Shown in pieces: positions 695-6,636 of a DNA stretch of 34,069 bases. Within the stretch, counting starts at the first letter, position 1. The number at the start of each line of letters is the position of its first letter. Source of the DNA: Treponema sp. (GTDB lineage Bacteria; Spirochaetota; Spirochaetia; Treponematales; Breznakiellaceae). Both the position numbers and the translations under genes were made by a program. The notes beneath the pieces were generated by a model. That model was not told the DNA's origin and ran no database searches. It saw only the letters and a program-made list of their open reading frames with translations. The stretch spans positions 1-34,069 of the forward strand of contig JAISBN010000004.1 of assembly GCA_031266175.1 (NCBI GenBank), given 5' to 3'.

Positions 695-1167
695 TGATGA
701 AAACAATAGTAACATTTGGCGTTTTTGATTTGCTCCACCTTGGACATTTGCGGTTGTTTGCAAACATAAAGAAAAGATGCGGCATTGAAAATAAACTCAT
801 TGTGGCCGTACAGGATTCCGCTTATATTTTAAAATACAAACCCAATACCAAAATAGTCTATAGCAATGAAGAACGTTTGGAAATGATACAAAATCTTAAA
901 CCCGTTGACAACGTCATCATATATACCGATATTGATGTAACAATAAAAACCATTAATTTTGATATCTGGGCAAAAGGGCCGGATCAAATTCATTCCGGTT
1001 TTCAAAGGGCAATAGAGTGGTGTAAAAAAACCGATAAGGCTGTGATTGAAATACCAAGAACCGAAGGTATATCCTCAAGCTTATTAAAGTCCCATATTAT
1101 TGATCCTTCTCCAGGGGCTGGATATTTAAACCCGGTTTCTAATAAACAGGAAGAAAGTGATGCTTGA
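694..1167 (+). CDS. TagD-like cytidylyltransferase (glycerol-3-phosphate cytidylyltransferase family)
   Basis: Nucleotidyltransferase motif TFGVFDLLHLGHLRL and C-terminal PRTEGISSSLLKS; overlaps the upstream stop as TAATG. Confidence 0.85.
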   Translation: MMKTIVTFGVFDLLHLGHLRLFANIKKRCGIENKLIVAVQDSAYILKYKPNTKIVYSNEERLEMIQNLKPVDNVIIYTDIDVTIKTINFDIWAKGPDQIHSGFQRAIEWCKKTDKAVIEIPRTEGISSSLLKSHIIDPSPGAGYLNPVSNKQEESDA

Positions 1168-3841: not shown

Positions 3842-6636
3842 TCCCGCTCCCATTCCCCCCAGCTTTCCTTTCTAAACAGTTCCCTTCCCTTTAATTCCCG
3901 CCTTCCCTCCAGATTAAACTGATACGGCCCGTGCCGGAGCGGCTGGGACGACACCTCGCCTACCGCCACCAGGGGCCTGTTTCTTTCCGCCAACCCTTCC
4001 GGTTCTTTCCCGCCTGTCTCCGCCCTTTCCCCGCCACTTTTCACCGATTCCGTTCCGCTTTCCTCTTTAGCCGCTGCCGCCGGGATACCGCCGTCTTCCG
4101 GGCCGGGGCCCAAAAGACCGGCGGCGGCCAGAGACGGGGTGTCGGCGTGGGTCATTAATTCCTGCGAAATTTTTACTGCGCCGCGGGAATCAAAATCTTT
4201 TACCAGAAGAATCGGGTTATGTCCTTCCATTTCGCTGAATTCGATGCCGCCGCCGTGGTAGTTTCCTCCGTGATCGGAGACAACGATTATTCTGGTATTG
4301 TCATATACGCCGTGTTGTTTCAGGTAGGAGAGCCATTTAACAAACTGTTTCATGGCGGACATAAACGTATACATGTATTCGGCGTTGCTTTCCGAACCGT
4401 AAAAGGCCGTTTCCGGTTCGTCAAACAAAACGGCCTCCGGTTTGGGGAACAGCCGCGCATCGTAAGCCCCCGATTCATGGGTAACGGCGTTCATGAAGAT
4501 ATTAAGGGTCCCGGTATTTGAATCGACAGGGCATAGGTCCGGTAAATAATAGAGGGCGGAAAACTCCGCCACCGCTCTGCCGTAACTGTTATATGCCGCT
4601 TCCTTCCACCACTGGCCTTTGTAATGAATCCCGTAACGCAGCGCCGGCGGGGAAGAGCGGAAGAGCCCGTATCGGAAGAGGATATCAAAATCAAAGGTGT
4701 CTATTGCTTTTTCTTCCGCATTAGGAAATTCCGCCCTGAAGCGGTCCGACAGTTTACCGGAAAGAACGCCGGCGGTAACGTTCGGCAGATCCTGAAAAAT
4801 CGAAACATCCGGGACCGACTGCATGTTTGCAATGACCGGATCGGTGATGGACACCCGGTACCCCGCTTTTCCGAAAAGACGGGGAAGAGCCGTCAGCGCC
4901 TCGTTTACCTTGTCAACCAGGAGTTCATCTTTCCGTTTGTTAATTGCCGCCGGGGTATATTCATAGCCTCCCAGCATGGCGGGAACCCCGGTTACCGTAC
5001 AGCTTCCGAAAGAAAGGGTGTTGGGATAAAAGGCAAAACCGTCAAGCTGCTCCCGCAAATCCGGCATATACGCCAGCGCGTCGGTCATGGCGGTTCCCTG
5101 GGCCCGGTCAAAAAACACAATAAAGACATTGCGTTCCGCCGCGGACAGCGGAAAAACCGCGGGAAAACCGGAAGCCGGATCGGGAATTCCGGCGGATGTC
5201 CGGGCCTGGAGCCGGGACAGAGCTGCGGACTGTCTGACCAGGGAAACCATGTTCACCGCTCCCAGTACCAGCAGCGCGGCGGCGCCGGCCTGAAAAAGAG
5301 CGGCCAAAAGCCGGTCCTTTCCCAATACGATAAACGCCGCCGCCAGAAGTATCGAGGCCGCCGGAACGGCTATGCTTATCCAGAGGGGAAAGGCATGGAG
5401 AAGCCGTCCGGTATCGTCAAGCCTGAAATTCCGGTCCATGACGCCATAGGACGCGGAGAGGGCAAAATAGGAGATAAGGCAGCTTATCGTCAGGGCTGCG
5501 GCCCCCGCGGCCAGGACCCTGCGGACACCGAAGGACGCGAGGGCCCTTACAAAAAGGGGGATCATCACCAGAAAGGCAAAACCCTGGAGCGCGGTCCGCA
5601 GGACAAACTCCAGGGGCTTCTCAAAATCAGCGGCCGAAGCTGAAAGAACCTGGGCGGGATTAAGAAAGCCAATCAGCAGAAAAAGAACCGCCAGGGAAGA
5701 AACATAGAGGGCTGTCATGTCGCCGCTTTTTGCGGTCAAACGGACCGGTTCATTTCCCGTTACCTTGGCGGGTCTTCCGTCCAAAAGCCGCAGCAAACCC
5801 CGCCAGATAAAGGGAACGGCCATAAGGACCAGCGCTATTCCGGTAAAAAGCACGCGGTACCGTTCTACGCTCGCCCGGCCGGACCAAATCAAGAAAAGAA
5901 AAACCCCCGCAGAAAAAGAAACGGCAAGATGCAAAGCCCTTCCGGGTTTTTTAAGCCCCGCCTGGGCGGCGTTTTTAACCAGGGAATAGACATTGTTCAT
6001 GGTCCAGTAAAGGACAAGGCCCGAGGGGGAATTGTAAAGGAGAACAAGAAAAACAAGGGCCATGGCAACAAGCTGGATCCGTTCCCGTTTTTCCATATCC
6101 CTTGCATATATCAGGGAAGAGGCCAGGTTTACGGAGGTCATCAGTATGGGCATAACGTTGATAACAATTATTCCCGCCCGGGGAAGGGTTATCCGCAGCA
6201 ATCCGTCGGGCACGCTGAGATTCCTAAGAAAAAGAAAAGAAACCCCCGAAAGCATGGCGGTACGGGAAAGAAACTGATAGGCGGCGATAAAAAAGGGAAT
6301 TTGCAGCAAGAGGCCTATGCTTGCTTTAAGCACAAATACCGGGGAATAACCCATCTGCCGGTTATAGGTGTTCAGGATCATCTGCCGCTCGTCGCCTTTA
6401 AACACCGCCCGGATGTCCGCAATCTTTTTCTTCATCCGCTTTTGAAGATTCCGTTCTTCCTTCTGCCAGCGGTCGGCAATAAGATACACGGGCAGTGAAA
6501 GGGTATTAACCACAACGCTTAAAAAAATCACCGCGGGGCCGGGGGCGTCAAAGATGCGGTTGAACAGCACAAAAAGGAATTCCAGGATCAACCGGACAGG
6601 CCAGATAAAAAGGGTATACAGCGTTTCTCCTGTCAT
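3838..6636 (-). CDS. Second YidC/Oxa1-like + alkaline-phosphatase/sulfatase-superfamily fusion protein (paralog of 1160-3841)
   Basis: LLQIPFFIAAYQFLSR, LPVYLIADRWQKEERNLQKRMKKKIADIRAVFKGDERQ, YNSPSGLVLYWTMNN; then VFFDRAQ, GSCTVTGVPAMLGGYEYTP, VTHESGAYD, IIVVSDHGG. Confidence 0.85.
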   Translation of the reverse strand: MTGETLYTLFIWPVRLILEFLFVLFNRIFDAPGPAVIFLSVVVNTLSLPVYLIADRWQKEERNLQKRMKKKIADIRAVFKGDERQMILNTYNRQMGYSPVFVLKASIGLLLQIPFFIAAYQFLSRTAMLSGVSFLFLRNLSVPDGLLRITLPRAGIIVINVMPILMTSVNLASSLIYARDMEKRERIQLVAMALVFLVLLYNSPSGLVLYWTMNNVYSLVKNAAQAGLKKPGRALHLAVSFSAGVFLFLIWSGRASVERYRVLFTGIALVLMAVPFIWRGLLRLLDGRPAKVTGNEPVRLTAKSGDMTALYVSSLAVLFLLIGFLNPAQVLSASAADFEKPLEFVLRTALQGFAFLVMIPLFVRALASFGVRRVLAAGAAALTISCLISYFALSASYGVMDRNFRLDDTGRLLHAFPLWISIAVPAASILLAAAFIVLGKDRLLAALFQAGAAALLVLGAVNMVSLVRQSAALSRLQARTSAGIPDPASGFPAVFPLSAAERNVFIVFFDRAQGTAMTDALAYMPDLREQLDGFAFYPNTLSFGSCTVTGVPAMLGGYEYTPAAINKRKDELLVDKVNEALTALPRLFGKAGYRVSITDPVIANMQSVPDVSIFQDLPNVTAGVLSGKLSDRFRAEFPNAEEKAIDTFDFDILFRYGLFRSSPPALRYGIHYKGQWWKEAAYNSYGRAVAEFSALYYLPDLCPVDSNTGTLNIFMNAVTHESGAYDARLFPKPEAVLFDEPETAFYGSESNAEYMYTFMSAMKQFVKWLSYLKQHGVYDNTRIIVVSDHGGNYHGGGIEFSEMEGHNPILLVKDFDSRGAVKISQELMTHADTPSLAAAGLLGPGPEDGGIPAAAAKEESGTESVKSGGERAETGGKEPEGLAERNRPLVAVGEVSSQPLRHGPYQFNLEGRRELKGRELFRKESWGEWERD

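What the first reader, a model, noticed from the sequence alone, without database searches (positions are those of the whole stretch)
1160..6636. Two YidC/Oxa1-like + LtaS/sulfatase-like fusion proteins
Both ORFs start with a YidC-like module (for example IQIPFFIAAFRFL / LQIPFFIAAYQFL; YNSPAGLVLYWTSNN / YNSPSGLVLYWTMNN). More TM helices follow, then an alkaline-phosphatase-superfamily domain retaining a plausible catalytic set (MLDRA/FFDRA; GHTVFG/SCTVTG as nucleophile Thr; THEP/THES; VSDHG). LtaS-type enzymes normally carry a simple 5-TM anchor. I know of no characterised protein joining an insertase-type fold to a phosphoglycerol/phosphoethanolamine transferase-type domain. With neighbouring CDP-glycerol transferase and cytidylyltransferase genes, a membrane machine that translocates or polymerises a phosphodiester polymer is a reasonable hypothesis.
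Basis: partly seen in the sequence, partly recalled or inferred. Interest (0 to 1): 0.85.

Follow-up and report, generated by a model that had tools for sequence, protein, structure and literature searches.

The report
YidC-like modules fused to phosphotransferases
Spirochaetes and some Clostridia carry large membrane proteins, mislabelled in databases as the protein insertase YidC, that join a modified YidC-like membrane unit to an enzyme of the kind that attaches phosphate-containing groups to surface sugars, suggesting that an ancient protein-insertion fold was reused to build the cell surface.

Summary
A (1160-3841, +) and B (3838-6636, -) each join a YidC/Oxa1-fold module to a membrane-anchored LtaS/EptA-type alkaline-phosphatase-superfamily domain. 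AlphaFold is confident (pLDDT 93 full length, 91 N-module); the N-module's only significant PDB matches are YidC. The architecture is widespread in spirochaetes (68 of 298 sampled genomes) and occurs in Clostridia, but is annotated as 'membrane protein insertase YidC'; I found no paper describing it. It is not the housekeeping insertase: the genome has a separate canonical YidC, and the positive groove residue called strictly conserved in YidC (K/R in 24 of 24 clean controls here) is N/S/T in 223 of 228 homologues and never K or R. Yet the module is better conserved than the enzyme domain, so it is unlikely to be a mere anchor. New here: its partner is a divergent Glyphos_transf (PF04464). 65 of 69 genomes with the module have it, against 7 of 229 without; 71 of 72 same-contig copies lie within 10 kb. 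Neighbours make CMP/CDP-activated phospho- or phosphono-alkanolamines. Best reading: Glyphos_transf loads a phospho-group in the cytosol, the YidC-like groove docks or flips it, and the outer domain transfers it to surface glycan. The flipping step is inference.

The parts
1160..3841 (+). Protein A, 893 aa: YidC-like module + two extra TM helices + 5-TM LtaS/EptA-like anchor + extracytoplasmic alkaline-phosphatase-superfamily domain
1160..1828 (+). A: YidC/Oxa1-like module (residues 1-223), with neutral Ser at the position of the conserved YidC groove Arg/Lys (VSTFTLP motif from 1283)
1829..2029 (+). A: variable linker region with two TM helices (about residues 224-290), missing in some clostridial members
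2030..2569 (+). A: five-TM segment preceding the catalytic domain (about residues 291-470)
2612..3838 (+). A: extracytoplasmic catalytic domain; D499 (MLDRA from 2648), T536 (HTVFG from 2762), H705 (THEP from 3269), D768/H769 (SDHG from 3458)
3838..6636 (-). Protein B, 932 aa: paralogue of A with the same architecture, 36% identical
5962..6636 (-). B: YidC-like module (residues 1-225), Asn at the groove position (VNTLSLP from 6510); own AlphaFold model, TM-score 0.74 to B. halodurans YidC
3841..5115 (-). B: catalytic domain; FFDRA from 5115 (D510), CTVTG from 5001 (T547), THES from 4482 (H720), SDHG from 4278 (D788/H789)
41..694 (+). Glyphos_transf (PF04464) of the co-occurring divergent subfamily, 3' part only: contig edge and a 16-nt poly-C tract at 85-100
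694..1167 (+). Cytidylyltransferase-like protein overlapping both Glyphos_transf and A: one tight operon
6633..7832 (-). GT4 glycosyltransferase, overlapping the start of B (operon GT4-B)
7437..8552 (+). CDP-alcohol phosphatidyltransferase-domain protein, closest to inositol-phosphate-type synthases
8549..9991 (+). WbaP-type undecaprenyl-phosphate sugar-phosphate transferase
11882..13123 (+). Second, full-length Glyphos_transf (413 aa)

Best explanation
A and B are transferases of a phosphodiester or phosphonate substituent onto a surface glycan or glycolipid, built as a machine with parts on both sides of the inner membrane. Step 1 (inferred): nucleotidyltransferases and decarboxylases in the same clusters make a CMP/CDP-activated small group (phosphoethanolamine-like, 2-aminoethylphosphonate, glycerol phosphate). 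Step 2 (inferred from family): the partner Glyphos_transf passes that group to a membrane acceptor on the cytosolic face. Step 3 (inferred): the YidC-like module docks this partner through its conserved cytosolic hairpin and provides the membrane groove through which the lipid-linked group reaches the outer face. Step 4 (well supported by fold and active site): the LtaS/EptA-like outer domain transfers the group through its catalytic Thr to the final acceptor. Shown here: folds, predicted topology, intact active site, loss of the insertase charge, strong constraint on the module, and the genetic link to Glyphos_transf. Not shown: substrates, acceptor, physical contact, and any flipping.
For: Catalytic D/T/H/D/H set almost invariant. 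Model pLDDT 93.4 with top PDB matches including PbgA/YejM, LtaP, MCR-1 and LtaS. Loop charges over 127 sequences fit a cytosolic hairpin and an outer catalytic domain. N-module fold is YidC only. N/S/T at the groove position in 223 of 228 homologues, never K/R; N/S/T/Q in 29 of 29 clostridial copies, against K/R in 24 of 24 clean canonical controls. N-module is more conserved than the enzyme: TM2/TM4/TM5 about 0.9-1.0 bits, ectodomain 2.0, other TMs 2.4-2.8. Divergent Glyphos_transf in 65 of 69 module genomes against 7 of 229 others, 71 of 72 same-contig copies within 10 kb; ordinary TagF-like copies show no such link, 1 of 38. Fusion and Glyphos_transf are adjacent and co-directional 34 + 9 times, 39 of 43 within 50 nt. 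Stand-alone modules lie next to Glyphos_transf in three genomes: with CMP-aminoethylphosphonate genes and a separate membrane protein, Sulfatase-domain by Pfam in one, in two genomes, or overlapping Glyphos_transf with no such gene on the contig. CMP/CDP-activating enzymes in 48 of 77 loci. E. coli YidC scrambles lipids in vitro (PMC10491306).
Against: No biochemistry. No structure of the complex could be computed. Presence/absence statistics are not corrected for phylogeny. The genome-contig loci are the best-scoring hits to one query, mostly Treponema MAGs. Four module genomes lack a detected Glyphos_transf partner. LtaS/EptA enzymes use ordinary phospholipids as donors and need no dedicated flippase, so steps 2-3 are not required by precedent. 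The separate sulfatase-fold protein in the two split loci is only distantly related to the fused one.
Confidence: 0.45

Rival explanations
1. An LtaS/EptA-type transferase that uses ordinary inner-membrane phospholipids, with the YidC-like module serving only to recruit Glyphos_transf and hold the acceptor; nothing is flipped by it.
For: Closest structures are phospholipid-headgroup transferases or relatives. The cytosolic hairpin is conserved (12 of 45 positions below 0.5 bits). Stand-alone modules pair with Glyphos_transf.
Against: The strongest constraint is in TM2, TM4 and TM5, inside the membrane, not only in the hairpin.
Confidence: 0.28
2. The module is still a protein insertase, dedicated to inserting the following TM segments or a cluster partner.
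For: YidC fold, cytosolic hairpin and PF02096 membership. In E. coli YidC the groove charge is dispensable when residue 517 is hydrophilic or aromatic (PMC8920935).
Against: The residue aligned with E. coli Y517 is invariant Trp. In S. mutans YidC2 Trp sits there natively (W234) and neutralising the groove Arg inactivates the protein (PMC8920935); this is the state of the fusions. A canonical YidC coexists. The link is to Glyphos_transf and surface-glycan genes.
Confidence: 0.1
3. The YidC-like part is a passive anchor kept by descent.
For: LtaS-type enzymes need only a 5-TM anchor, which this protein also has.
Against: It evolves more slowly than the catalytic domain and exists as a separate polypeptide in the same gene setting.
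Confidence: 0.07
4. The outer domain is a hydrolase that trims phosphodiester/phosphonate groups rather than adding them.
For: Phosphonate monoester hydrolases are among the structural matches, and YejM/PbgA-like members are not classic transferases (own knowledge).
Against: Multi-TM anchored Thr-nucleophile members characterised as transferases (LtaS, EptA/MCR) are closer in layout; clusters are biosynthetic and include activated-donor synthesis.
Confidence: 0.1

Closest known systems
YidC/Oxa1/SpoIIIJ membrane protein insertases (PF02096)
   Same: Five-TM Oxa1 core, N-terminal amphipathic helix, cytosolic helical hairpin; TM-score 0.74 to B. halodurans YidC.
   Different: Positively charged groove residue absent; separate from canonical YidC in the tree; fused to or encoded with phospho-transfer genes; canonical YidC also present.
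LtaS/LtaP, EptA/MCR-1, PbgA/YejM (alkaline-phosphatase-superfamily membrane enzymes)
   Same: 5-TM anchor plus outer domain, Thr nucleophile, D/T/D/H metal set; among the best Foldseek matches.
   Different: Extra N-terminal YidC-like module; first metal ligand is Asp rather than the Glu of LtaS (from memory); sequence similarity to LtaS is negligible (NCBIfam LtaS 11.2 bits against a cut-off of 970).
GacH, the streptococcal LtaS-like glycerol-phosphate transferase
   Same: Adds glycerol phosphate to a surface polysaccharide (PMC8807736); catalytic Thr530 (role from memory).
   Different: Not known to contain a YidC-like module (own knowledge); different gene setting.
TagF/TarF-type CDP-glycerol glycerophosphotransferases (partner gene, PF04464)
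   Same: Partner is over the Pfam cut-off; the only solved relative found is TagF-like Cps3D.
   Different: Divergent subfamily almost restricted to genomes with the YidC-like module.
Pnt/Lic surface-tailoring pathways (PntC of T. denticola, LicC)
   Same: Same cytidylyl-activation genes occur in 9-11 of 77 loci and in the two split loci (PMC6697681).
   Different: The cited paper does not mention YidC or sulfatase genes; the final transfer step is left open there.

Membership tests
YidC membrane protein insertase | Five-TM Oxa1-superfamily fold | tested here: met
   PF02096 E 1e-19; significant Foldseek hits only YidC, TM-score up to 0.74
YidC membrane protein insertase | Cytosolic helical hairpin C1 between the first two core TMs | tested here: met
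   Helices 31-77 and 80-93 in the model, net positive loop
[quoted passage not shown]
   No K or R in 228 homologues or 29 clostridial copies; 24 of 24 clean spirochaete controls K/R
YidC membrane protein insertase | NCBI subfamily model TIGR03592 over its cut-off | tested here: not met
   73.3 and 78.4 bits against 84.3
YidC membrane protein insertase | Insertase activity / complementation | not testable with these tools
   needs a depletion-strain assay
LtaS/EptA-type membrane phosphotransferase | Alkaline-phosphatase-superfamily outer domain with Thr nucleophile and metal ligands | tested here: met
LtaS/EptA-type membrane phosphotransferase | Five TM helices immediately before the outer domain | tested here: met
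   Helices 295-320, 335-359, 362-384, 407-428, 433-475; loop charges fit
LtaS/EptA-type membrane phosphotransferase | Headgroup transfer from a phospholipid donor | not testable with these tools
   needs biochemistry
Sulfatase | Formylglycine motif C/S-x-P-x-R at the nucleophile | tested here: not met
   T536-x-x-G-x-P consensus instead over 228 homologues
Glyphos_transf (PF04464) partner | Pfam gathering score | tested here: met
   35-58 bits against 22.1

The most novel reading that the evidence does not exclude
An Oxa1-superfamily module that has stopped inserting proteins and instead carries lipid-linked phospho- or phosphono-groups across the membrane, handing them from a cytosolic Glyphos_transf to an outer LtaS-like transferase in one polypeptide: a new class of lipid/glycan translocase-transferase.
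Probability: 0.3. Interest if true: 0.92.

Novelty: new variant of a known kind. Interest (0 to 1): 0.75.

Why it matters
Oxa1-superfamily proteins are known as protein insertases; recent work shows they also scramble lipids in vitro (PMC10491306), but I know of no natural case where scrambling is the job. This family offers one to test. It supplies a candidate for the unknown transfer step downstream of CMP-aminoethylphosphonate in spirochaetes, could explain how treponemes and Brachyspira decorate their surface, and corrects a database error, since these proteins are listed as YidC.

Tried and rejected
Chance or misassembly: rejected, the same architecture occurs in a large number of contigs. 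Housekeeping YidC: rejected, a separate 641-aa YidC lies elsewhere in the genome. True sulfatase: rejected, no formylglycine motif. Spirochaete-only: rejected, 12 of 394 genomes of the class of a Clostridia bin have it, on contigs up to 444 kb. Link to any PF04464 protein: rejected, only the divergent subfamily is linked. The split loci as simple breaks of the fusion: rejected, their sulfatase-fold protein gives no BLAST match to the fused one at 1e-6. Literature searches for the architecture found nothing. In the groove-residue counts two control rows were set aside: C_L145 (wrong-frame translation) and C_L086 (clostridial, reads Y, long branch, unsure alignment). The tree separates the N-modules from canonical YidC with support 99/100, but long branches meet there, so only that split is used.

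Full report
What is there. Two paralogous ORFs lie tail-to-tail: A, 1160-3841 (+), 893 aa, and B, 3838-6636 (-), 932 aa, 36% identical end to end. Each begins with a Pfam 60KD_IMP (YidC) domain (E 1.1e-19 and 3.2e-19) and ends with a sulfatase/alkaline-phosphatase-superfamily domain (B 1.2e-6, over the cut-off; A 0.0015, under it). A forms a tight operon with an incomplete Glyphos_transf (PF04464) and a cytidylyltransferase-like gene, neighbours overlapping by a few bases; B overlaps a GT4 glycosyltransferase. Beyond lie a CDP-alcohol phosphatidyltransferase-domain protein, a WbaP-type initiating transferase and a second Glyphos_transf.

Fold. AlphaFold of A with 127 sequences gives mean pLDDT 93.4, pTM 0.87. 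The best PDB matches to the whole include PbgA/YejM, LtaP, MCR-1, LtaS and phosphonate monoester hydrolases. The N-module of B modelled alone (pLDDT 90.7) has only YidC structures as significant matches, TM-score up to 0.74. The layout is YidC core (5 TM), two extra helices, five TM helices, outer enzyme. Loop charges over 127 sequences put the YidC hairpin inside and the enzyme outside. Some clostridial members lack the two extra helices, so the unit is modular.

Active site. Over 228 homologues D499, T536 (Thr, four Ser), H705, D768 and H769 are almost invariant, and there is no formylglycine motif. This is the LtaS/EptA type of site, not a sulfatase.

The YidC-like module is changed but strongly constrained. 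The positively charged groove residue, described as strictly conserved in YidC (PMC8920935), is N 95, S 93, T 35, C 2, G 2, gap 1 in 228 homologues, and N 20, S 6, Q 2, T 1 in clostridial copies, whereas 24 of 24 clean canonical YidC controls have K or R, including the YidC of this genome. The published mutants give a direct comparison: in S. mutans YidC2, with native Trp at the neighbouring position, neutralising the Arg kills function. The fusions have invariant Trp there. In E. coli YidC the charge is dispensable when that position is hydrophilic or aromatic, so loss of insertase function is likely but not proved. At the same time TM2, TM4 and TM5 of the module are the most conserved parts of the protein (0.9-1.0 bits mean entropy against 2.0 for the ectodomain and 2.4-2.8 for the other TM regions), with module-specific near-invariants (G80, N164, Y171, N208, K215) that differ from canonical YidC.

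Spread. 68 of 298 sampled Spirochaetota genomes have a match at E <= 1e-60, often two to four copies; 12 of 394 genomes of the class of a Clostridia bin have the N-module, 29 copies, all in 847-954 aa frames. Among spirochaetes the scores separate cleanly: modules at 186-347 bits (one broken copy at 169), canonical YidC at 145 or less. Stand-alone modules are rare in the sampled spirochaetes (three genomes), though a word-limited search found about 120 short relatives, some of which may be fragments. Databases name these proteins 'membrane protein insertase YidC'.

Partner. In 77 genome loci, Glyphos_transf lies within 8 kb of the fusion in 56, directly downstream 34 times and directly upstream nine times, 39 of these 43 within 50 nt and 23 overlapping. 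Across 298 spirochaete genomes the divergent PF04464 subfamily is present in 65 of 69 module genomes and 7 of 229 others (Fisher p 3e-52, not corrected for phylogeny); 71 of its 72 hits on a module contig are within 10 kb. Ordinary TagF-like proteins are not linked (1 of 38 within 10 kb). The split genomes make the same point. In L091 and L092 a stand-alone module (47-52% identical to the fused one) sits between CMP-aminoethylphosphonate genes and Glyphos_transf, followed by a separate membrane protein that matches Pfam Sulfatase in L092 (1.5e-8). In L133 a stand-alone module overlaps Glyphos_transf by 8 nt with no sulfatase-fold gene seen on the 8.4-kb contig. So the module follows Glyphos_transf even without the fused enzyme.

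Substrate clues. Neighbours include a nucleotidyltransferase fused to a CobD-like PLP enzyme (34 loci), cytidylyltransferase-PEP mutase (11), phosphonopyruvate decarboxylase (10), PntC-AEP transaminase (9) and heptose genes (15). PntC of T. denticola makes CMP-aminoethylphosphonate (PMC6697681); the acceptor step is not established there. 48 of 77 loci hold at least one such activating enzyme.

How it most likely works. Cytosolic loading by Glyphos_transf, docking or translocation by the YidC-like module, outer transfer by the LtaS/EptA-like domain. Fold, active site, topology, loss of the charge, constraint and gene association are shown by computation; substrate, docking and translocation are inferred. 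The translocation idea has one outside support: purified E. coli YidC and other Oxa1 proteins scramble lipids in vitro (PMC10491306).

Known or new. The pieces are known families; the architecture, its non-insertase groove, its distribution and its tie to one Glyphos_transf subfamily were not found described in the papers I could search, which exclude most subscription journals. As an enzyme it is a new variant of LtaS/EptA-type transferases. If the module translocates lipid-linked groups, it would be a new kind.

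Noticed in passing
window 85-100; loci L006, L007, L031, L034, L056, L064, L068: A 16-nt poly-C tract lies in the incomplete Glyphos_transf of the window. Over 1.13 Mb of related loci, 7 of 12 G/C runs of 9 or more lie in fusion genes and one in Glyphos_transf: possible phase variation of this surface modification; assembly error not excluded.
   Followed up: partly
L080:7918-9741 and 33 other loci: A fused protein, MobA-like nucleotidyltransferase plus CobD-like PLP enzyme, accompanies the fusions in 34 of 77 loci; it may make and activate ethanolamine phosphate or aminopropanol phosphate in one polypeptide.
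   Followed up: partly
   Followed up: partly
L014:15946-17622, L036:15569-17500, L058:2291-4105: Recurrent proteins of 560-650 aa near the fusions with no Pfam or NCBIfam match.
   Followed up: no
L093 (G342:C9), L098-L103: Clostridial genomes carry fusions, often in tandem, with Glyphos_transf and, in some, PEP mutase/decarboxylase genes, suggesting transfer of the whole gene set between phyla.
   Followed up: partly
G047 (1,139,633-bp chromosome, T. pallidum size): Only the canonical YidC is present and no Glyphos_transf, consistent with absence of this system in the smallest Treponema-order genome sampled.
   Followed up: no
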